A stretch of 64,000 nt of DNA from Pseudomonas oryzihabitans. Lineage in GTDB: Bacteria > Pseudomonadota > Gammaproteobacteria > Pseudomonadales > Pseudomonadaceae. The stretch lies in contig NZ_CP021645.1 of assembly GCF_006384975.1 (NCBI RefSeq), forward strand, positions 248,001 to 312,000, written 5' to 3'. Positions 34,570-45,953 of this stretch are shown here, piece after piece (the first letter of the stretch is position 1; the number at the start of each line of letters is the position of its first letter). The notes under the pieces are model-generated. The model searched no databases and had not been told where the DNA came from. It saw only the letters and a program-made list of their open reading frames with translations. The position numbers were made by a program, and so were the translations under genes.

Positions 34570-36668
34570 GAGGGCGCCGTCACCCGCCGGGCTGACCCGG
34601 ACAGCATGGTGGCCACCTGCGCGGCCAACTGGTCCAGGGTGAAGGGCTTGGTCATGAGCTCCATGTTACCACCCAGGAAAGCCGTTCTACTCAGGGCGCC
34701 CTCGGCATAGCCGGTCAGGAACAGCACCGGCAAGCGTGGCCTGAGCTGCTGGATCACCTCCGCCAGTTGGCGGCCATTCAGGCCCGGCAGGCCGACATCG
34801 GTCACCAGCAGGTCCAGCTGGGGCAACTGCTCCACCAGGCGCAGCGCGGCCTTGCCTTCGGCCGCACTCCAGACCCGATAGCCCAGAGCTTCCAGCGCCT
34901 CCTGGTTGACCAGGCGCACGGCATCGTCGTCTTCCACCAACAGGATGGTCTCCCCGGCGCCCTGGGTGAATTCGCTAGGCGCGACGCGCGGCGACTCGCG
35001 GCGCTGCTCCGCCGTTGGCAGATAGACGCAGATCCGCGTCCCCGTCGCATCGCTGGCGATGGTCAGGCGGCCGTTGCTCTGCCGGGCGAAGCCATAAACC
35101 ATCGACAGGCCCAGGCCGGTGCCCTGGCCCTGGGGCTTGGTGGTGAAGAAGGGTTCGAGCACCTTGTCCAGCAACCGCTCCGGGATACCCGTCCCGGTAT
35201 CCCGGACTTCGATGCAGACATAGTCGCCCGGGGCCAGGGCATCGTCCTCGGGACCCTGTTCGCTGCAGGTGACCAGGGAGGTCGCGAGGGTGACGAGCCC
35301 GCCGTCCGGCATGGCATCGCGGGCGTTGATCACCAGGTTGAGGAGGGCGTTCTCCAGCTGATTGGCATCGGCCAGGATCCAGGGCAGGTCGGTGCCCAAT
35401 TCCAGCGTCACCGAGATCTGCTCGCTCACGGTGCGTTGCAGCAGATCGTGCAGCGCCAGGATCAGTTCGTTGGCGGACATCGGCCGCGATTCCAGCGACT
35501 GCCGACGCGAGAAGGCCAGCAAGCGCTGGGTGAGGGCCGCCGCCCGGTGCGCCGAATGCTGGGCCGCTTCCATGTAGCGCTCCAGCCCTGCCAGTTGGCC
35601 CTTGCCCTTGATCCTCATCAGATCCAGAGCGCCCAGCACCCCGGTCAGCATGTTGTTGAAGTCGTGGGCGATCCCGCCGGTGAGCTGACCGACCGCTTCC
35701 ATCTTCAGCGATTGGCGCAACTGCTCTTCGGCGCGGCTGCGCTCGGCGGTTTCCCGTTGCAGCTCGCTGAGCGTGAGCGCCAGGGTCCGGGTGCGCTCCT
35801 GCACCTGGACCTCCAGCTCTTCGTTGAAGCGCCGCAAGGCCAGTTCGGCCCGCTTCTCGTCGCTGATGTCGGCGATCACCGTGGTCGCCCCGATGATCTG
35901 CTGGGCGTCGTCATGCAAGGGCACCGCGCTCACGCGCAGCCAGGATTCCGCACCGTCGGCGGTGGTGTGATAGAAGTCCTGGCCCCTGACGCGCTCCCCC
36001 CGCAAGGCCCGCGCGCCCGGAAATTGATCGGGCGGCAGCAGTTGCCCGGTACTGTCGAGCGCTGCCCAGCGCGCCGCTTCCCGGGGTTGCCGGGAGGGGA
36101 TGCGCTGCCCCGGTACATGCTGCTCGTAGAAGGGATTGCTGACTAGGGTGCGGCCTTCTCGGTCCATGAAGCACACCCCGACCGGCAGGTTCTCCAGCAG
36201 GGTCTGCATGCGCTCGCGCTCCTGGGCGAGTTCGCTGAGGCGATCACGCATCTCGAACTGACGCAGGCGCGAACGCCAGGCGGCGGCAACGCTGCTGAGC
36301 AGGGAAGCGCCGCTCAGGGGGCGTTCCAGGATGACCACGTTGGTCGCCGCCGCGGGCAACTGCCGGCGCAGCAGATCGTTGCCCCGGCCCGAGCGTTTGG
36401 CGTCGGAGGCCAGCAGCACCAGCGGGATGTCCGACCAGGTCGGCTGTCGCTCCAGCGCCCCGCTCAGGGCACCCATGTTCTGCCGCAGGGCTTCCTCGGT
36501 GAACACGATGATCCCGGTCTCGTCGCCGAGGGCGGCCGCCACCTCGTCGAGGCTGCTCAGGTAGCGGGTGTGGTAACCCTGGGTGAATAGCCGCTGCAGG
36601 CTGGCTGCGTCACCCCGTAGCGGTGCGCAGATGATGAGCTCGCAGGACGGCGCCGCTGTCTCGGTCAA
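34566..36668 (-). CDS. Hybrid sensor histidine kinase (pseudo-receiver, PAS, HisKA, HATPase, receiver)
   Basis: 700 residues, soluble. An N-terminal receiver-like domain (1-135; [32 protein letters not shown]) lacks a clear phospho-acceptor Asp. PAS follows at ~150-275, a coiled coil at ~275-325, the phosphorylation site His335 in [11 protein letters not shown], HATPase motifs [10 protein letters not shown] and [12 protein letters not shown], and a C-terminal receiver (~583-695) with LVTDVGLPG and TKPFT. The start codon is TTG, overlapping the KaiC-like gene's stop as TTGA, so the two are coupled. Its TAG stop lies inside the end of the inverted-repeat element. Confidence 0.9.
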
Positions 36669-38158
36669 TCGCGCTGTTCCATCAGGGGTTGCGTGGCACC
36701 GAAGTATTCCGGCGTACCGGTGAGGACGCCGCGGAATTCCACCAGGGGTTGGCCCACCCGGATTCCTCGGGTATCGATGCGCAGTTCCCGGATCGCATCT
36801 TCGTGACCGCCACCGCGGTGCTTGAGGATGGAAATCGCCTTGCGCAGGCGCCCGTGGGCTTCGAAGAAGCGAATCAGTACCACGGTGTCGGCGATGTAGG
36901 AGATATCGAGATTGGTGGTCATCGAACCGACCAGGCCGTGCTGGGGATTGAGGAGAAAGGTCACCACCCCGGATTGACTGAGGTAGGAGAGCAGCTCATG
37001 CATCTGCAGGATTAGCTGCTGTTCCTGCGGCATGGCGGCGAGGTAGCCATTGAGACTGTCCAGCACCAGCATGCGGCAGTCGTGCTCTTCGACGTCCCGC
37101 CGCACGCGCCAGGCGAATTCGCCGGGAGAGAGCTCGGCGGGATCGATCTGGTGGACCACCAGCAGGCCCTCCTCGATATAGCGCAGCAGCGGCATCCCCA
37201 TACTTTCCGCCCGCTTCATCAGGGTACCGATGCGCTCGTCGAACTCATAGACGGCGCAGCGCTCGCCCCGGGCGCAAGCGGCCACTACGTACTGCAGGGC
37301 CAGGGTGGTCTTGCCGGTACCGGCCGGGCCGGTGATCAGGGTGCTGGTGCCGCGCAACGGTCCGCCATGCAGCAGGGCATCCAGGTCGGGAATATCGCTG
37401 GGTACCGGGGCGCCGACGAAGTCTTGGTGGCGCCCCGCCGCGATCATGCGCGGATAGACTTCCAGGCCCCCACGGCGGATGGTGAAGTCGTGATAGCCGG
37501 CGATGAAGTCCACGCCGCGCAGCTTCTGCACCTGCAGGCGCCGGCGGGCGGCGCCGAAGTCCAGGGTCAGGCGCTCCAGGGTCAGTACCCCATGGCAGAG
37601 GCTGTGCAGGTGATTGTCCCGCTCGCCGCCGCTGGTGGTCAGGTCATCCACCAGCAGCACGGTCAGGCCACGCCCGGCGAAGAAATGCTTGAGCGCCAGC
37701 ACCTGGCGCCGATAGCGCAGCGGGTCCTGGGCCAGCAGGCGCATCTCGGACAGGCTGTCGAATACCAGGCGGCTGGGCTTGATTTCATCCACCCGGGCCT
37801 GGATCAGCTCGATGGTATCGCCCAGTTCCGACTCCCAGGGATGCAGGATGGTCTGCTCCTGCGCGCCCCCGAGTACCGCGTCGGCAGCCGACAACTCGAA
37901 CAGGTGCACGCCCTCCAGGCTCCAGCCATGGGATTCGGCCACGCTCTGCAACTCTTCGCTGGTTTCCGAGAGGGTGATGTAGAGCACCGACTCGCCCTGG
38001 CGCACCCCTTCGAAGAGAAACTGCAGGCCCAGGGTCGTCTTGCCCGAGCCCGGAGTGCCTTCCAGCAGATAGAGACGATCTCTCGGCAGGCCGCCGCGCA
38101 ACACCCCGTCCAGGCCGGGATTGCCGGTCGCGATGATTGAGTGACTGGGGGAGTTCAT
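36665..38158 (-). CDS. KaiC-like two-domain RecA-superfamily ATPase
   Basis: 497 residues with two KaiC/RecA domains: Walker A GTPGSGKTT at 34-42 and GPAGTGKTT at 277-285, with TLSETSEEL holding the catalytic glutamates of domain 1 and LVFDSLSEMRLL as Walker B. No kaiA or kaiB is present, so clock function is not implied; such proteins in Pseudomonas usually pair with histidine kinases as signalling switches. The ATG at 38158 was chosen because family homology starts there; the 30 upstream residues are Arg-rich. It overlaps the hybrid kinase gene by 4 bp. Confidence 0.88.
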   Translation of the reverse strand: MNSPSHSIIATGNPGLDGVLRGGLPRDRLYLLEGTPGSGKTTLGLQFLFEGVRQGESVLYITLSETSEELQSVAESHGWSLEGVHLFELSAADAVLGGAQEQTILHPWESELGDTIELIQARVDEIKPSRLVFDSLSEMRLLAQDPLRYRRQVLALKHFFAGRGLTVLLVDDLTTSGGERDNHLHSLCHGVLTLERLTLDFGAARRRLQVQKLRGVDFIAGYHDFTIRRGGLEVYPRMIAAGRHQDFVGAPVPSDIPDLDALLHGGPLRGTSTLITGPAGTGKTTLALQYVVAACARGERCAVYEFDERIGTLMKRAESMGMPLLRYIEEGLLVVHQIDPAELSPGEFAWRVRRDVEEHDCRMLVLDSLNGYLAAMPQEQQLILQMHELLSYLSQSGVVTFLLNPQHGLVGSMTTNLDISYIADTVVLIRFFEAHGRLRKAISILKHRGGGHEDAIRELRIDTRGIRVGQPLVEFRGVLTGTPEYFGATQPLMEQRD

Positions 38159-38419
38159 GGCTGAGCGGACCTCGCGGCGGCGCAAACGAAAGGGCAGGAA
38201 ACGCCGGGTGGCGAGGCCTTGGTGCCGACTCGCAACGTGCGGCGGCAACCTGCAGGACCCGCTGGAGCTTGGCCTGAGGACGACGACAGGGTAGGTGAAG
38301 GGCCTTCCCGTGCCGCAACAATCGTCAGTCTAATACGCTAGATCGCTCCAGGCCACTTTGGTACACCGGCGGTAACCTTTGCCGCTATCTTCCGCCATCC
38401 GCGCCAGGCACCGCCCCGC

Positions 38420-40024
38420 TCAGGTGACGCCGCTCGGACCGTCCAGTACCCGCCGCACCTTGCGCGCCAGATCGTTGGGAATATAGGGCTTGGAGATCAC
38501 CTCGAATTCCGAGCCGCCGATATCGGTGCGCTCCAGGGAATTTTCCGCGTAGCCGGTGGTGAGCAGCACCCTGGTGTCCGGGTACAGCCGCTTGACCTCG
38601 CGGGCCAGCATCACGCCGTTCATGCCCCCCGGCATGATCAGGTCGGTGAACACCAGGTCGAACGGCTGCTCGGTCTCGCGCAGGATGCGCAAGGCTTCGC
38701 TGGCATTGATGGCGATCTGCGCGGTGTAGCCATAGTCTTCCAGCACCAGCTTGGCCAGGTCGGCGACATCCGGCCGATCTTCCACCACCAGGATGCGTTC
38801 GGTGCCGCTGCGTCGGTCGGAGCGCTGTTCCTGTTGCTGATAGGTGATGTGGCTATCGTCCACCGGGAAATACAGACGCAGGGTAGTGCCGACGTCTTCC
38901 TCCGAATAGATGCGCACCGTCCCGCCGGATTGCTTGGCGAAGCCATAGACCATCGACAGCCCCAGGCCCGACCCCTTGCCTTCCTCCTTGGTGGTGAAGA
39001 AGGGGTCCATCACCCGATCGCGGATGCTGGCCGGCATGCCATGGCCGTTGTCGGTGATGGCCAGGCTGACGTAGCGACCTGGCATCAGGCCGTCATAGGA
39101 CATATTGGCCAGCTCGCGGACCTCGACGTTGCGCGTCTCGATCCCCACGCTGGCCTTAGGGCGATCCGCCAGAGCATCGCGGGCGTTGATCAGGATGTTT
39201 AGCAGCGCCACCTCGGCCTGGGTCGGGTCGATCCGGCAGTTCCACAAGTGGGGGTCCAACTGGGTGCGGATTTCCACGTCGCCCAGGGTGCGTTCGGCCA
39301 GCTCGTGGGAGGTACGGATCAGGTTGTTCAGATTGAGCACCCGACCCTCCAGCTTCTGCTTGCGCGAGAAGGCGAGCAGCTGCTGGGTGAGGGTGCTGGC
39401 CCGTTCGGCGGCCGACTTGGCATGGGTGGCGCTGCGCAGGATGCGCTCCTGATCAAAGCTGGGCTTCTCCGCGGTGCGCTGGATGATGTCGATGTAGCCC
39501 ATCATCACCTGCAGCAGGTTGTTGAAGTCGTGGGCGATACCACCGGTGAGCTGCCCCAGGGCCTCCATTTTTTGTGCCTGGCGCAAGGCATCCTCGGCAT
39601 CGCGGCGCCGGCTGACGTCGAGTTGGGAGGCGAAGAAATAGATCAGCTCGCCCGCATCGTTGTACACCGGCGAGATGAACAGCGCGTTCCAGAAGCTCGA
39701 GCCATCCTTGCGGTAGTTGATGATCTCCACCGACAACTCGCGCTTCTGCTCCACCGCCTCGCGAATCTGGCTGACCACCGCGCGATCGGTCTCCGGGCCC
39801 TGCAGAAAGCGGCAGTTCTGCCCGATCAGCTCGTCCACCTGGTAGCCGGTCATCTCGATGAAGGCGTTGTTGGCGAAGATGATCGGATTGTCCGGCTGCG
39901 ACGGGTCGGTCACCAGCATCGGCATCCGCGTGGTTTCCACGGCGGCGAAGAAAATGTTCTTGCCCTGGTGCGAAATATCGCCTGTCGCTGAATTGTCGAC
40001 CCGCGCCTTGCGGGACTTGGGCAT
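38420..40024 (-). CDS. LOV-domain blue-light hybrid histidine kinase
   Basis: 534 residues from the ATG at 40024; a TTG at 40081 would add 19. The LOV motif GQNCRFLQG places the flavin-adduct Cys at residue 71, followed by the LOV-like [20 protein letters not shown]. Then comes [13 protein letters not shown] with the phospho-accepting His, HATPase ([28 protein letters not shown]), and a C-terminal receiver ([33 protein letters not shown]). This LOV-HK-REC order is that of the P. syringae LOV kinase. Blue light should form a Cys-flavin adduct and alter kinase activity. It is divergent from a single-domain receiver. Confidence 0.92.
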
Positions 40025-40263
40025 CTGGCTCACGTATGCGGGATCCTTGCGCGGCAAATGGGCGTCTTGGCCCTCAGACAACCCAGCGGCAAAAAAACTT
40101 CATCGACGTCGCGCTTGAGCCTCTCTAGGGCGGCCCTTGTCGGGCTGTAAGCCAGGCGGAGTGCGGCTTTGGCGGCCAGTGGCCAGCGTACCGCTCACCC
40201 GCCTCAGGTGACCGTTAAGGAAGTCCGCGGAGAATCTCGCACTCATCCGATGTCTGAGCTGCC

Positions 40264-40650
40264 ATGAAGCCGAGAAGCCTTGATATACAAAGACAAATCC
40301 TTGTTCTGGAAGACGATCCGGGGCAGCGCGAGCTGCTGACCGAAGTCCTTACCGAACAGGGACTGGATGTCGTCGCCGTCGCCTCCAGCGACGAGGCCCT
40401 GGCTCACATGGACGCACACAGCGGTGACACCAAGCTGGTCATCGCCGATGTGAACGTACCGGGCATCCTGGATGGCCTGGCCTTCGCGCAACTGGCCGCG
40501 GCCAGCTGGCCAACGGTGCCCTTCATCATCATCTCCGGCTACATCGACCAGGATCTCGCCGTCCTGCCACGCCGCGCCGCCTTCCTGCCCAAGCCCTGGG
40601 GTGTTGCCGATCTGCGCCAGTTGGTCGAGAGCCTGCTGCCGCGTCGCTAG
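40264..40650 (+). CDS. Single-domain response regulator
   Basis: 128 residues, receiver domain only. Acidic pair EDD at 16-18, phospho-acceptor Asp62 in LVIADVNVPG, switch Ser in IIISGY, and Lys110 in FLPKPW. With no output domain it probably acts as a phosphotransfer or CheY-like protein. It lies divergently beside the LOV kinase and is a candidate partner of that kinase or of the KaiC-linked hybrid kinase. Confidence 0.88.
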   Translation: MKPRSLDIQRQILVLEDDPGQRELLTEVLTEQGLDVVAVASSDEALAHMDAHSGDTKLVIADVNVPGILDGLAFAQLAAASWPTVPFIIISGYIDQDLAVLPRRAAFLPKPWGVADLRQLVESLLPRR

Positions 40651-42075: not shown

Positions 42076-42320
42076 GGGGCTCCTAGCAGGAGTGCAGAAG
42101 AAGTCTTCAGAAACGACGAGGCGCGCACTAAGCGTGCCTTGAGGTGATCCTGGTAGATCGGATTTGGTCGAGCGACTACGTCAAGCCTAAGCGCTGCAGG
42201 CCGCATGAGAGTTGAGATTTGAGGCCGTGGTGGCTTGTCGGCATACAAGCTGGCATACACGGTGCTTAACCTGCGCCCTGGCTGAGGCCATTCGATCCAT
42301 TTGGCCGGCGGTTCAATTCC
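42076..42320. other. Left boundary of the AT-rich island
   Basis: This gap holds the left direct repeat and then about 140 bp of intermediate composition without a recognisable gene. A minus-strand frame here (starting MYASLYADKPPRPQ) is probably chance; a decayed integrase end was considered but cannot be supported. Confidence 0.5.
42108..42178. repeat. Island direct repeat, left copy (attachment-site-like)
   Basis: About 70 bp that match 45883-45953 at most positions: CAGAAACGAC, then a stem-loop AGGCGCGC-ACTAA-GCGTGCCT, GGTGATCCTG, ATCGGATTTGGTCG and AGCGACT. The last part copies the 3' end of the tRNA-Pro gene with one base deleted. Similarity stops immediately after this. Confidence 0.7.
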
Positions 42321-42998
42321 CTATTCTGGCCAGTTGATGAGATGGATCAGGGAGCCCGGTTTATCTAGGTTCAAAGAATGTCTTCGCTCAAAGGACAGAT
42401 CGGCCATTCGCATTGGTGAGAGGCCATGAACCACAGCCTCGCAAATTTGTACGAAGGCTAACGGTTGAGGGAAGAAATCAGCTGCAATGCGGAGCTCTTG
42501 AACACCGCTAATTTGCATGTGGGATTGACAGTGAGCTGTCACCGCAGCGTCAAAATCAAACCTAATATGAGATGTATTGCATGGGCTGTGACCCTGGCTT
42601 TCCATAAGCTCGGTCCAGTTGTAAAGGTGATTATAGAGGTCAAGATCTTCTCTATCGAGAGCCTCTTCTGCTGCTACAAAGATCTCGTCTTGACTTGATG
42701 AGCTTTTTATCGGTGAAGGGTAAAAGGCTAATCTCCCTTTTTGTAGTTTCTCTGTAGCATCAAAGCCATAATAAAACTGGAAAAATGATCCGTCCGATAA
42801 AAGAACTGAATATTGTTGGCTGTCTAATAGCTTTTGATACTCAATCGGGTAGTACGAGTTTTTGTAGATACCTGGCTTTCTGCCTTGCCAAGTTATTTGA
42901 AGCTCATCATGGATTATACAAGAGTTCTGAACTTGGGTATGCGATGCAAGATGCCGAATCGCATTTCGTATGCCTTGCTCTGCATGTGCAAATTTCAT
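42321..42998 (-). CDS. DUF2290-like hypothetical protein, partner of the island helicase
   Basis: 225 residues, AT-rich and unlike its neighbours in codon use. The segment CNTSHIRFDFDAAVTAHCQSHMQISGVQELRI, followed by FVQICEAVVHG, resembles DUF2290, a domain of unknown function. No signal peptide or membrane helices. The start is 8 bp after the helicase stop and its ribosome site overlaps that stop (TAGGA), so both are made from one transcript. I infer a joint function with the helicase, possibly phage defence. The DUF2290 call is from memory of the motif and moderate. Confidence 0.6.
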   Translation of the reverse strand: MKFAHAEQGIRNAIRHLASHTQVQNSCIIHDELQITWQGRKPGIYKNSYYPIEYQKLLDSQQYSVLLSDGSFFQFYYGFDATEKLQKGRLAFYPSPIKSSSSQDEIFVAAEEALDREDLDLYNHLYNWTELMESQGHSPCNTSHIRFDFDAAVTAHCQSHMQISGVQELRIAADFFPQPLAFVQICEAVVHGLSPMRMADLSFERRHSLNLDKPGSLIHLINWPE

Positions 42999-43006
42999 AT
43001 GGCATC

Positions 43007-45238
43007 CTACTTGCGTCGCTCGATGTTTATCGAAAGTTCCGGATGCTTCTCAATAATCTCAAGGGCACGTTGTAACTCATCAAGCTCTTTGTCGGTTTTG
43101 TTCAGGAACGTTTTGTTGCTATTAACAATCGCTGGGTCGGGGCAGGCAAACTTAAATCTAGGGAAGTCCTGCTTGATGGCTTCAATTTCATTTGTAAGTG
43201 ATGCCATATTAGTGCCGTAGCCAGTGATGTAGCACCATCCCCTAGATCGAGTGACTGCCACAAAGAAAGCGTTTCTCATTCTCAGTGTAAAATCGCTCAC
43301 AACTAGTTGGGCATTTAGCACAAATACTATATTTGCCTCATTTCCTTTTGCTCGGAAAGGAGTGGTGATTGTGACAAAGCCTTTTGGCTTGAAAACATCG
43401 GCACTTTCCACATAGCCAGGAAGTACGGATTTCACTCCGGCATTAGTGAGGGCTCTTTGAATTGCCAGCATTGCGCTCTTGTTATTTCCTGAGCGGAGAT
43501 TGATTACTATTATTTCTTCTGGTGCAACGGCATGTTCGTCTATCAGACGTTTAACGCTTTGGCTTATGTACGTAAGCTGATCATCTTCGTTTTCAGCTGT
43601 GTGAGTTTGTATAAGGTTCAGCGGTTTGCGTCGGTTGTCATTTAGAATTCCTTCAAGAAGGTTTTTACTGTTTTCGTCCGGTCTTTCTATGTCAACTTGA
43701 TCGCCTTGATGAATTTCCAAGGTTCTTGGTTCGTTTACTCTGTAGCCAATGGCATTCCATTCGGCAGCGTAATAGAACATTTCGCTGGGCTGCTTAGAGT
43801 AAATGCCCATTGCGACCCCATGTGCAGTCATCAGAACAGGTCGTGGAGTTCGATAGCAGTTTGGTAGAACGAAGTCTTTGGGAATCCCGCCCTCATACGA
43901 TCCATTGAGTATCGTGTCAGGTAGGTTTGGTTTTCCGTCAGTGCCTGACCCGAACAATTCTGACGGCCCTTTAATGAAAGAGTCACGAAGAGATTGGAAT
44001 TCGTCGTATGCCCATATAATACGCTTTTGTTGGCCCTCACCCTTGGCCAACTTGTAAGCTACTTGGAAGATTTCATTTGAAAAATCCTGTGCCTCATCTA
44101 TTAGTACCAAGTCGTATTCAGGCTGTATCTTGTCTCCAACTTTTAGGAGAAGATCTCTATAGATGGATCCCAAAGCGTCGCTCGATCCTCTTACATCTTG
44201 AAATGTTAGAGGCGTGATGCCCATTTTTTGGCATAGGCTTGAGTAAAGTCCAGGTCTCTGTCTTCCACCCCATGCATGGTAGACATCTATCCTTGTATCA
44301 AAGTCGGGTGCTTTTTTCGCTTCTAAGGTATAGTACCTCGAGATTAAGCTCTGAACATGCTGGTAAAGACTTTGGGTATTAAAAAGATAAAGTATTTTAA
44401 AATCTGGAAACTTTTTGTGTGTGATGGCTGCTTTCAAGCAGAGGACAATGGTTTTTCCTGTTCCTGCTAGCCCCCGTATCCTTTGTGGGCCAGGAGGTAG
44501 CTGCATCGCTGCCCTTCTTTGTGCATCGTCCTGTTTGAAAGTCGTCTGTAATGATTTTTGGATGTAGTCATTTATGGTGGTGAGCGGCTTTTCTTCTATC
44601 GGTATATCTTTGTTTTCATATACAAAGGTTCCCTCAATTAAAGAGTATATTTTTCCTAAATCTTCCTCGGAGCAGTTGTAATCGAGAGGTATGTTGTCTA
44701 GATATGCATCGATCTCATCGAAGCTTAAATTTTCTATTGAAGTTAATTCGATATTAACCAAGTCTGATTGCTCAGCCTTGTCATTTGCACAGAAAACTAT
44801 AACGCTTCGGACTGGTACTTTAGAGCGGCGTGTTTTTCGATCATAGAGTGCTAAGTCGTTTTTAAGGCGGCTTTGTACTTCTTCTTCGTATATTTCGTTA
44901 ATTATAACTCGAGAAGTTGTTATATGTCCGGACTCTGCCCTCCAGTAATCTGCGTCTCTGCGTTCTATTACGTCGATTATCCTGTCCTCAACAACATCGA
45001 TTAGCAGTATGCCAATTTGCTGAGAAACTACTATGAAAGATGGTACGTCTTGGTCTGAGGATCTGCCAAGAGTAGTAAGTTTATAGCCTACATACCCCTT
45101 GTGGTCTTTAAGCTTGTTTTGGATGGTTCCAGCTATTTGAAAATGAAATGGCTTATTCTCAAGCGCTAATGATCCGGATAGAAATGAAAATTTGTCGTCC
45201 ATACGTGCGCCCGAGTGAATTGGTGGAAAAAAGGCCAT
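43007..45238 (-). CDS. SF1 (UvrD-like) DNA/RNA helicase with nuclease-like N-terminal domain
   Basis: 743 residues. N-terminal ~220 residues contain DVPSFIVVSQQIGILLIDVVED, which resembles the beta-hairpin core of NERD / PD-(D/E)XK nuclease domains but lacks the usual ExK (IDVV instead). The helicase has Walker A GLAGTGKT (256-263), Walker B LVLIDEAQDF (377-386), motif III IIWAYDEFQSL, motif V TTPFRAKGNEANIVFVL and motif VI FVAVTRSRGWCYI. ATG 45238 gives the full frame; an internal ATG (Met13) could be used, and neither has a clear ribosome site. Low GC shows recent acquisition. First gene of a two-gene island operon. Confidence 0.85.
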   Translation of the reverse strand: MAFFPPIHSGARMDDKFSFLSGSLALENKPFHFQIAGTIQNKLKDHKGYVGYKLTTLGRSSDQDVPSFIVVSQQIGILLIDVVEDRIIDVIERRDADYWRAESGHITTSRVIINEIYEEEVQSRLKNDLALYDRKTRRSKVPVRSVIVFCANDKAEQSDLVNIELTSIENLSFDEIDAYLDNIPLDYNCSEEDLGKIYSLIEGTFVYENKDIPIEEKPLTTINDYIQKSLQTTFKQDDAQRRAAMQLPPGPQRIRGLAGTGKTIVLCLKAAITHKKFPDFKILYLFNTQSLYQHVQSLISRYYTLEAKKAPDFDTRIDVYHAWGGRQRPGLYSSLCQKMGITPLTFQDVRGSSDALGSIYRDLLLKVGDKIQPEYDLVLIDEAQDFSNEIFQVAYKLAKGEGQQKRIIWAYDEFQSLRDSFIKGPSELFGSGTDGKPNLPDTILNGSYEGGIPKDFVLPNCYRTPRPVLMTAHGVAMGIYSKQPSEMFYYAAEWNAIGYRVNEPRTLEIHQGDQVDIERPDENSKNLLEGILNDNRRKPLNLIQTHTAENEDDQLTYISQSVKRLIDEHAVAPEEIIVINLRSGNNKSAMLAIQRALTNAGVKSVLPGYVESADVFKPKGFVTITTPFRAKGNEANIVFVLNAQLVVSDFTLRMRNAFFVAVTRSRGWCYITGYGTNMASLTNEIEAIKQDFPRFKFACPDPAIVNSNKTFLNKTDKELDELQRALEIIEKHPELSINIERRK

Positions 45239-45882
45239 GGTGACGATGAAATGGCCTACCAGCGTGCCTAGGATAGCTAGGAATACGTACTATTTTAGCT
45301 CGACTACCGGTTGCCAGATAGCAACTGACCAAAATGCTTGGGGGGGCAAGGATCCGCAGGGAAATTCCAGGCTGCCATCTGCCTTCCTAGGCTGCGACTG
45401 GCGCAGCTTAAGGGCGAATACAGGGGTACAGAAAAAGCGACACGTTTAGCCCGCAGGTGTGGCGGGGTGACAACGGCGCGCGCCTGGTGCAGAGCCCTCC
45501 GGCGCGGCCTCTGGCGGCCAAGGTGTGGGGCCGGTTGCCCCGACACTGCCGCGCCGCCACGCCGCCCGTCGTCGGCCTTTCGCTGGCCAGGGAGGGCTGA
45601 TCGGTGCGGTTGGTCGGCTGCACACCCTGTGGCCCTCTAAAGGCAGGAAGATTTAGGCGCTGCTAGTCCCTGGGGCTTCGGCGTGCTCGCGGTTCAGTAT
45701 ACAAGAGGGAGTGCAGGGCGTCTCCGTCAAAACAGGGCAGACGGTAATCGCGTCCAGCGATGAAAAGGAGAATGAAGAGGGGGAAGGGAGCCTGCTTTTG
45801 GCCTTTCCGTTACCTGGCTAGGGCAAGCATTTCCCAACGCAGGAATCAAGGCTCGGAAAGAGCGGCGCCCACACAAAACACC
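45239..45882. other. Non-coding right part of the island
   Basis: About 640 bp between the helicase start and the right repeat. The first 100 bp are AT-rich and should hold the helicase promoter. From about 45310 GC rises again. I found no convincing gene: frames on both strands are short and low-complexity. It may be remnants of an earlier integration or a non-coding RNA region. Confidence 0.5.
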
Positions 45883-45953
45883 CAGAAACGACAAGGCCCG
45901 CACTAGGCGGGCCTTGGGGTGATCCTGCTGGATCGGATTTGGTCGGAGCGACT
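45883..45953. repeat. Island direct repeat, right copy, overlapping the tRNA-Pro 3' end
   Basis: Partner of 42108-42178. It spans the tRNA terminator, the gap and the last 14 bases of tRNA-Pro (45940-45953). This is the usual layout of an attachment site used by a tRNA-targeting integrase. Confidence 0.7.
45893..45915 (-). terminator. Terminator of tRNA-Pro
   Basis: AAGGCCCGC and GCGGGCCTT form a 9-bp stem with a 5-base loop. On the minus strand it is followed by a weak TTGTCGTTT tract. A degenerate copy of the stem is in the left direct repeat. Confidence 0.75.

What the first reader, a model, noticed from the sequence alone, without database searches (positions are those of the whole stretch)
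42321..45238. Two-gene island: SF1 helicase with nuclease-like N-terminus plus DUF2290-like partner
Seen: an AT-rich minus-strand operon, out of character with the GC-rich chromosome; a 743-residue helicase with complete SF1 motifs and an unassigned N-terminal ~220 residues; a 225-residue partner whose ribosome site overlaps the helicase stop (TAGGA). Established: many anti-phage systems are small, horizontally moved operons of a UvrD-like helicase or nuclease with a partner of unknown function, inserted at tRNA genes. Inference: this pair may be an undescribed or little-described defence module. The N-terminal DVPSFIVV...GILLIDVVED segment looks like a NERD/PD-(D/E)XK core with a changed catalytic motif.
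Basis: partly seen in the sequence, partly recalled or inferred. Interest (0 to 1): 0.75.

Follow-up and report, generated by a model that had tools for sequence, protein, structure and literature searches.

The report
Helicase–DUF2290 defence pair in tRNA hotspot
A two-gene bacterial anti-virus system of an already reported type sits in a chromosomal slot beside a tRNA gene where related species keep other defence systems, and its helicase carries a worn-out nuclease domain, which suggests that the small second protein, whose role is unknown, does the damage.

Summary
In detail: an intact, AT-rich, minus-strand two-gene operon near tRNA-Pro(CGG). It is not undescribed: it matches the PADLOC helicase and DUF2290 models, i.e. 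the "Helicase + DUF2290" system, reported in 2022 to inhibit phage T7. New here: (1) The site is a defence hotspot. In 10 genus genomes where it could be read, one is empty and nine are occupied; of the eight besides ours, six carry PADLOC-matched defence genes (Hachiman, HerA–SIR2, Ppl-like and others), four of them beside an integrase-bearing satellite-like backbone. (2) The N-terminus is a degenerate NERD nuclease (profile E 3.6e-11). Helicases paired with DUF2290 keep the catalytic lysine in 0 of 51; unpaired relatives keep D, E and K in 11 of 14. (3) DUF2290 has no PDB or viral fold match, yet holds near-invariant D69, R146, D148, H156, H160 and R170. Best mechanism: the helicase senses foreign replicating DNA; DUF2290 is the effector that took over from the in-cis NERD nuclease. 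Identity about 0.93; the swap about 0.45, because it rests on very few independent evolutionary events. Novelty: new member of a known kind.

The parts
43007..45202 (-). SF1 (UvrD/Schlafen-g3-like) helicase, 731 aa from the likely start (the ORF opens at 45238)
   Evidence: (PADLOC Helicase PDLC03002, E 9.8e-111)
44654..45202 (-). N-terminal degenerate NERD (PD-(D/E)XK-like) domain, residues 1-183
   Evidence: profile-profile match to intact NERD N-termini, E 3.6e-11; catalytic D to S55, E to D69, K to V71
44990..44998 (-). Relic of the NERD E-x-K motif: D69-V70-V71
44450..44473 (-). Walker A motif GLAGTGKT (residues 244-251)
42321..42998 (-). DUF2290 protein, 225 aa, proposed effector
   Evidence: PF10053, 2e-13; PDLC02998, 1.6e-15
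42489..42563 (-). Near-invariant R146-x-D148 ... H156-x3-H160 ... R170 block of DUF2290 (D69 lies at 42792-42794)
   Evidence: R146 46/46, D148 46/46, H156 45/46, H160 43/46, R170 46/46, D69 45/46
42108..42170 (.). Far copy of the 63-nt att-like direct repeat
45883..45945 (.). tRNA-side copy of the 63-nt att-like repeat (tRNA 3' end plus its terminator-like stem)
   Evidence: a single copy in the empty site L158
45940..46016 (-). tRNA-Pro(CGG), the target of the hotspot
45421..45504 (.). Conserved border of the cargo slot on the tRNA side
   Evidence: shared, wholly or in part, with inserts L152, L153, L154, L155, L156, L157, L160
42240..42262 (.). Short conserved border of the cargo slot on the far side
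   Evidence: L152 (95.7% over 23 nt), L156 (100% over 22 nt)

Best explanation
The island is a Helicase + DUF2290 anti-phage (and probably anti-plasmid) module, carried as exchangeable cargo in a tRNA-Pro integration hotspot. Proposed working: the SF1 helicase is the sensor motor, which loads on aberrant or foreign replicating DNA (T7-like replication, some plasmids). Its N-terminus is a NERD nuclease fold that has lost its catalytic residues and now serves as a docking or regulatory platform. The DUF2290 protein is the effector enzyme that has taken over the damaging role. It is held inactive by the helicase until ATP-driven translocation or binding on target DNA releases or activates it, whereupon it damages nucleic acid or a nucleotide pool and stops phage replication or the cell. 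Shown here: identity, pairing, hotspot, loss of the nuclease motif, and near-invariant polar residues in DUF2290. Inferred: complex formation, the trigger, the effector chemistry, and the takeover itself.
For: PADLOC models: Helicase 9.8e-111 and DUF2290 1.6e-15. Published: helicase + DUF2290 specifically inhibits T7 (PMC9122126, passages). PAO1 PA1372/PA1371 is assigned to the same system (PMC11637435, passage), and inactivation of PA1372 removes the cost of plasmid pNUK73 and restores the transcriptional profile that the plasmid disturbs, SOS included (PMC4410645, passages). Pairing: DUF2290 directly downstream in 48 of 64 helicase loci (13 without, 3 cut by contig ends), and the helicase next to DUF2290 in the 4 class genomes found by PF10053, our own included. 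Hotspot: 6 of 8 other occupied copies of the site carry PADLOC-matched defence genes. NERD homology: hhalign E 3.6e-11, probability 97, against at most 0.58 for 10 shuffled controls. Motif: catalytic K kept in 0 of 44 paired rows and 0 of 7 further ones; D, E and K kept in 11 of 14 rows shown to be unpaired. Pfam NERD in 0 of 45 paired helicases and 12 of 18 in the other set, one of which is cut downstream. DUF2290: six charged or His residues at 93-100% across 46 rows.
Against: The swap rests on very few events. The tree needs 3 changes of each trait; of 3 independent pairs 1 shows opposite change and 2 show none. Without the five far rows it needs 2 changes of each, and of 2 pairs none shows opposite change; no sign test can reach significance. 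Three unpaired rows (L076, L078, L082) also lost the NERD motif. DUF2290 has no fold match, so its activity is a guess, and no complex was modelled. Activity of this member is untested; the protein validated against T7 was not fetched or compared, and most other paired helicases are only 25-29% identical to ours. The PAO1 phenotype concerns PA1372, whose sequence I could not fetch; its authors found no role for it without the plasmid.
Confidence: 0.58

Rival explanations
1. DUF2290 is not the effector but an adaptor or specificity factor: it binds DNA or a phage protein and loads the helicase, which stops replication by itself through unwinding or displacing replisomes. The pseudo-NERD domain is only a DNA grip.
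For: The helicase core is complete. In PAO1 loss of the helicase alone removes the phenotype (passages), which fits any model that needs the helicase. No nuclease signature was found in DUF2290.
Against: Near-invariant charged and His residues in DUF2290 look like an active site. In Hachiman, a better-studied helicase-plus-partner pair, the partner HamA is the effector nuclease and the helicase the sensor (PMC12278908, abstract start).
Confidence: 0.3
2. The pseudo-NERD domain keeps an unusual nuclease activity (invariant D69 in this clade, other residues elsewhere), and DUF2290 is its inhibitor or immunity partner.
For: P54, F56, G64, D69 and W87 are invariant in 45 close helicases; 31 of 44 paired rows keep the D of the D...ExK motif.
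Against: The catalytic K is kept in 0 of 51 paired rows, and the E position is E or D in only 17 of 44; Pfam NERD in 0 of 45.
Confidence: 0.1
3. The pair is a selfish cargo or relic with no present defence role in this host.
For: San Millan et al. found no growth disadvantage and no expression change for the plasmid-free PA1372 mutant (passages). No integrase gene was seen in the island (ORF list). Of the 13 genus genomes only this one gave a helicase match (E <= 0.001).
Against: Both ORFs are intact. The same slot holds other defence genes in 6 of 8 other occupied relatives. A member of the system inhibits T7.
Confidence: 0.07

Closest known systems
Helicase + DUF2290 (Rst_Helicase-DUF2290; Rousset et al. 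2022, PMC9122126)
   Same: Same two protein families by PADLOC models, adjacent and co-directional; carried in a small cargo slot of a mobile element.
   Different: Ours belongs to a clade in which D is S/T and E is D; in paired rows outside it the D is mostly kept and the E and K lost. Located at a tRNA-Pro island in which no integrase was seen. The validated protein itself was not compared.
PA1372/PA1371 of P. aeruginosa PAO1 (San Millan et al. 2015, PMC4410645; assigned to Helicase + DUF2290 in PMC11637435)
   Same: Helicase with its partner gene in a low-GC (44%) island of a Pseudomonas chromosome, per those papers.
   Different: Sequence not compared here; close to a transposase gene, per the paper; known by a plasmid-cost phenotype.
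NERD-helicases without DUF2290 (annotated 'nuclease-related domain-containing DEAD/DEAH box helicase' in plasmid records); Nhi-like systems
   Same: Homologous N-terminal fold and SF1 helicase core.
   Different: They keep the D...E-x-K nuclease motif in 11 of 14 and have no DUF2290 next door.
Hachiman (HamA nuclease + HamB helicase)
   Same: Plan of a sensor helicase plus an effector partner; occupies the same genomic slot in relative G008.
   Different: PADLOC calls HamB a DEAD-box helicase; HamA and HamB models do not match the window proteins, and Pfam HamA does not either.
Schlafen group 3 helicases (SLFN11, SLFN14)
   Different: Pfam SLFN-g3_helicase is below its cut-off (18.6 of 24 bits) and Pfam lists no Schlafen nuclease core.

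Membership tests
Helicase + DUF2290 system | Helicase gene of the catalogued family | tested here: met
   PADLOC PDLC03002, E 9.8e-111, residues 118-703 of the 743-aa ORF; PADLOC's own score threshold is not given by the tool
Helicase + DUF2290 system | Adjacent DUF2290 gene on the same strand | tested here: met
   PF10053 50.6 bits (cut-off 25), PDLC02998 1.6e-15; 8 nt downstream
Helicase + DUF2290 system | Anti-phage activity | not testable with these tools
   Published for another member, against T7 (PMC9122126, passages)
NERD nuclease (PF08378) | Homology of the N-terminus to NERD | tested here: met
   hhalign E 3.6e-11, 145 columns; shuffled controls at most probability 0.58. Pfam's own model does not fire
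NERD nuclease (PF08378) | Catalytic D ... E-x-K | tested here: not met
   S55, D69, V71; the K is absent in 51 of 51 paired rows
Nhi (nuclease-helicase immunity) | Active NERD-type nuclease fused to the helicase (feature partly recalled) | tested here: not met
   PADLOC Nhi only 2.7e-6, best stretch 373-419; catalytic motif lost
Gabija | GajA nuclease partner next to GajB | tested here: not met
   GajB best E 8.4e-6; the partner is DUF2290, no GajA hit
Hachiman | HamA (DUF1837) partner | tested here: not met
   No HamA or HamB hit for the window proteins
Schlafen group 3 | SLFN-g3_helicase over its Pfam cut-off | tested here: not met
   18.6 bits against 24; structural likeness only

The most novel reading that the evidence does not exclude
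DUF2290 is a previously unrecognised effector enzyme family with no solved or viral fold match found, built around near-invariant D69 / R146-x-D148 / H156-x3-H160 / R170. Its recruitment freed the NERD nuclease fused to an SF1 defence helicase to decay into a pseudo-nuclease platform: one helicase sensor chassis with an interchangeable effector, in cis (NERD) or in trans (DUF2290).
Probability: 0.4. Interest if true: 0.65.

Novelty: new member of a known kind. Interest (0 to 1): 0.45.

Why it matters
Helicase + DUF2290 is a catalogued defence system; in the eight library papers that hold the word DUF2290 I saw no mechanism for it (passages read in five; the other three seen only in the listing). 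Finding that its helicases carry a dead NERD domain, while most relatives without DUF2290 carry a live one, points to DUF2290 as the effector and names six residues to mutate. It offers one reading of why loss of PA1372 in PAO1 removes a plasmid's cost. The tRNA-Pro site is a compact defence hotspot with seven different defence cargoes in nine occupied genomes, ours counted, and one two-gene insert (relative G010) with no PADLOC match that is a candidate to test.

Tried and rejected

Phage records: no helicase relative at 1e-20. Plasmid records: 42 of 72,556 at 1e-30, none at 60% identity or more. The PADLOC helicase model in Pseudomonadaceae gave 158 of 398 genomes at E 0.001, but the listed matches beyond the first few are short and weak (generic helicases, my reading); only 3 of 398 exceed E 1e-100. 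The phylum search with A4 gave 9 of 398 at E 1e-20. Gabija, Hachiman, Nhi and Schlafen membership were considered and dropped (membership table). Promoter- and terminator-like sites: 4 and 6 found, 4.7 and 4.3 expected by shuffling.

Rows picked and dropped. A4 holds the window and 44 of the 48 paired loci (L044, L098, L099 and L165 left out). A3 is a hand pick of 18: 11 of the 13 unpaired loci (L087 and L095, fragments, left out), six weaker relatives without DUF2290 next door (L104, L105, L107, L109, L112, L113) and L091, whose contig ends right after the helicase, so that its pairing is unknown; L091 keeps the motif and is left out of the count of 14 but was treated as unpaired in the tree, in the Pfam count and in the profile. 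From A3, L093, L097 and L113, and from A4, L167, lack a Walker A match to my pattern and were not aligned. From I dropped L175 (own locus) and L177 (cut contig). L165 shares sequence with L042, so the 48 paired loci are 47 distinct ones. In the tree, 7 rows from protein hits have no tested neighbourhood; they were left out. For the hotspot, 24 hand-picked proteins were scanned with PADLOC, not every ORF.

Full report
What is there. The minus strand at 42321-45238 encodes a 743-codon helicase ORF followed 8 nt later by a 225-codon gene. Near homologues start at the 13th codon, giving 731 aa from 45202. The AGGA that precedes the second gene overlaps the helicase stop. The genes are 43-44% GC, while 543 windows of the same size elsewhere in the 64 kb are 62.6-71.0%. 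The island lies between a LysE-type translocator gene (PF01810) and tRNA-Pro(CGG). It is flanked by a 63-nt, 89% identical direct repeat, one copy of which carries the 3' end of the tRNA gene.

What it is. Pfam finds DUF2290 (50.6 bits, cut-off 25) and a UvrD-type C-terminal helicase domain. PADLOC's Helicase (9.8e-111) and DUF2290 (1.6e-15) models match. Rousset et al. 2022 (PMC9122126; passages seen) report that an ATP-dependent helicase with a DUF2290 protein, from the cargo hotspot of P4-like satellites, specifically inhibits T7. A 2024 discussion (PMC11637435, passage) assigns PA1372/PA1371 of P. aeruginosa PAO1 to the same system. San Millan et al. 2015 (PMC4410645, passages) report that inactivation of PA1372 restores fitness and the transcriptional profile of PAO1 carrying pNUK73, a plasmid that otherwise induces SOS. 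They also report no expression change of the helicase mutant without the plasmid, which they read as no role in the host. I did not compare PA1372, nor the T7-inhibiting protein, by sequence.

The site. Of 13 genus genomes searched with both flanks, 10 including our own keep the LysE-type gene and the tRNA gene on one contig; in G012, G001 and G005 the site could not be read. G007 has one repeat copy and nothing inserted (L158): an empty site. Nine are occupied. Besides ours: G008 carries HamA and HamB (5.9e-131, 4.7e-303); G009 HerA and SIR2 (4.7e-249, 4.2e-171); G004 PDC-M71A/B (9e-99, 3.9e-91); G011 PDC-S25 (4.9e-84) and a weaker SIR2 (1.6e-9); G006 a DUF262-type protein (NsnA 2.6e-54, PD-T4-2_A 3e-40; the DUF262 name is my recall) with a methyltransferase; G002 a Ppl-like protein (2.5e-26). 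G010 has a two-gene insert with no PADLOC hit. G003 has a GC-rich insert with a MerR regulator and a cation-efflux gene; PADLOC's only hit there is mad1 at 6.7e-10, on the MerR N-terminus, and the same hit appears for the G004 copy of that regulator; I count it as a generic DNA-binding match, not as defence. G011, G006, G008 and G002 carry a tyrosine integrase; DUF927 was found in G011, G008 and G002, and a Toprim_3 protein in G011 (not every backbone gene was scanned). Parts of the island edges at 45421-45504 and 42240-42262 recur in other inserts, so the cargo slot has shared borders. I saw no integrase in our island; whether it lost one or moved by recombination of the flanks is open.

Pairing. 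Among 64 loci with a helicase match at E 1e-60 or better (out of 81 searched: 76 genome-contig loci plus 5 fetched regions), 48 have DUF2290 directly downstream, 13 do not and 3 are cut by contig ends (L165 duplicates L042). From the DUF2290 side, 4 of 369 class genomes have PF10053 and all 4, our own among them, have the helicase next to it. Of the 9 genomes of the phylum search, one is ours, one match is cut by its contig (L177), and the other 7 are paired.

The N-terminus. Profile comparison of the N-terminal domain (helicase part removed) with 12 intact NERD N-termini of relatives (11 unpaired, one cut) gives E 3.6e-11 over 145 columns; ten column-shuffled controls reach probability 0.58 at most. 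AlphaFold gives the domain a helix, a run of strands, a helix and a strand, compatible with that fold by my reading. The catalytic D, E and K are S55, D69 and V71 in the window. In 44 paired rows with tested context the K is kept in 0, the D in 31 and an E or D at the E position in 17; in 7 more paired rows the K is kept in 0. In 14 alignable rows shown to be unpaired all three are kept in 11; the cut row L091 keeps them too. Pfam NERD matches 12 of the 18 in that set and 0 of 45 paired helicases. Against a simple swap: three unpaired helicases (L076, L078, L082) also lost the motif, and the tree needs only 3 changes of either trait. Of 3 independent pairs one goes the expected way and two show no difference; without the five far rows it is 2 changes of each and 0 of 2 pairs; with so few the sign test cannot reach 0.05. 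L076 lies beside a DUF2357-PDDEXK_7 gene and L078 beside a helicase with an MTES_1575 nuclease, which may be other replacement nucleases, but n is 2.

Judgement. The finding is a real, intact defence module of a kind already in print. Its value is the effector-swap lead and the hotspot. That I found no role for DUF2290 in print rests in this library (eight papers hold the word; passages read in five); that I found no NERD link to this system rests (of the five papers listed by the three searches, passages read in two). Subscription papers are mostly not covered.

Noticed in passing
L152:1254-3293 (relative G010, same tRNA-Pro slot): Two low-GC genes (293 aa, membrane-like by eye; 382 aa, with an ANAPC3 Pfam match just over its cut-off) occupy the defence slot but match no PADLOC model: a candidate undescribed defence pair.
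   Followed up: partly
L153, L154, L157, L160: Satellite-like backbones at the same tRNA-Pro: tyrosine integrase in all four, DUF927 protein in L153, L157 and L160 (a near-identical ORF in L154 was not scanned), with variable defence cargo at the far end.
   Followed up: partly
L156:4384-5331: A 315-aa protein, membrane-like by eye, next to a HerA-SIR2 pair, with no PADLOC or Pfam match; possible accessory gene.
   Followed up: partly
L076:9908-15215: Helicase with a degenerate NERD and no DUF2290, followed by an AAA-like gene and a DUF2357-PDDEXK_7 nuclease gene: possible alternative effector.
   Followed up: partly
L078:9155-16972: Helicase with an N-terminal DUF4145 and a NERD-like part that lacks the catalytic K, next to a large helicase with an MTES_1575 nuclease.
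   Followed up: partly
L155:4277-5586 and L159:984-2290: A MerR regulator and cation-efflux gene pair recurs in the same tRNA-Pro slot in two relatives, so the slot is not used for defence alone.
   Followed up: partly
window 36665-38248: A KaiC-like protein with two matched stretches, beside what reads by eye as a PAS histidine kinase with a receiver domain (38420-40081) and a receiver-domain protein (40264-40650).
   Followed up: partly
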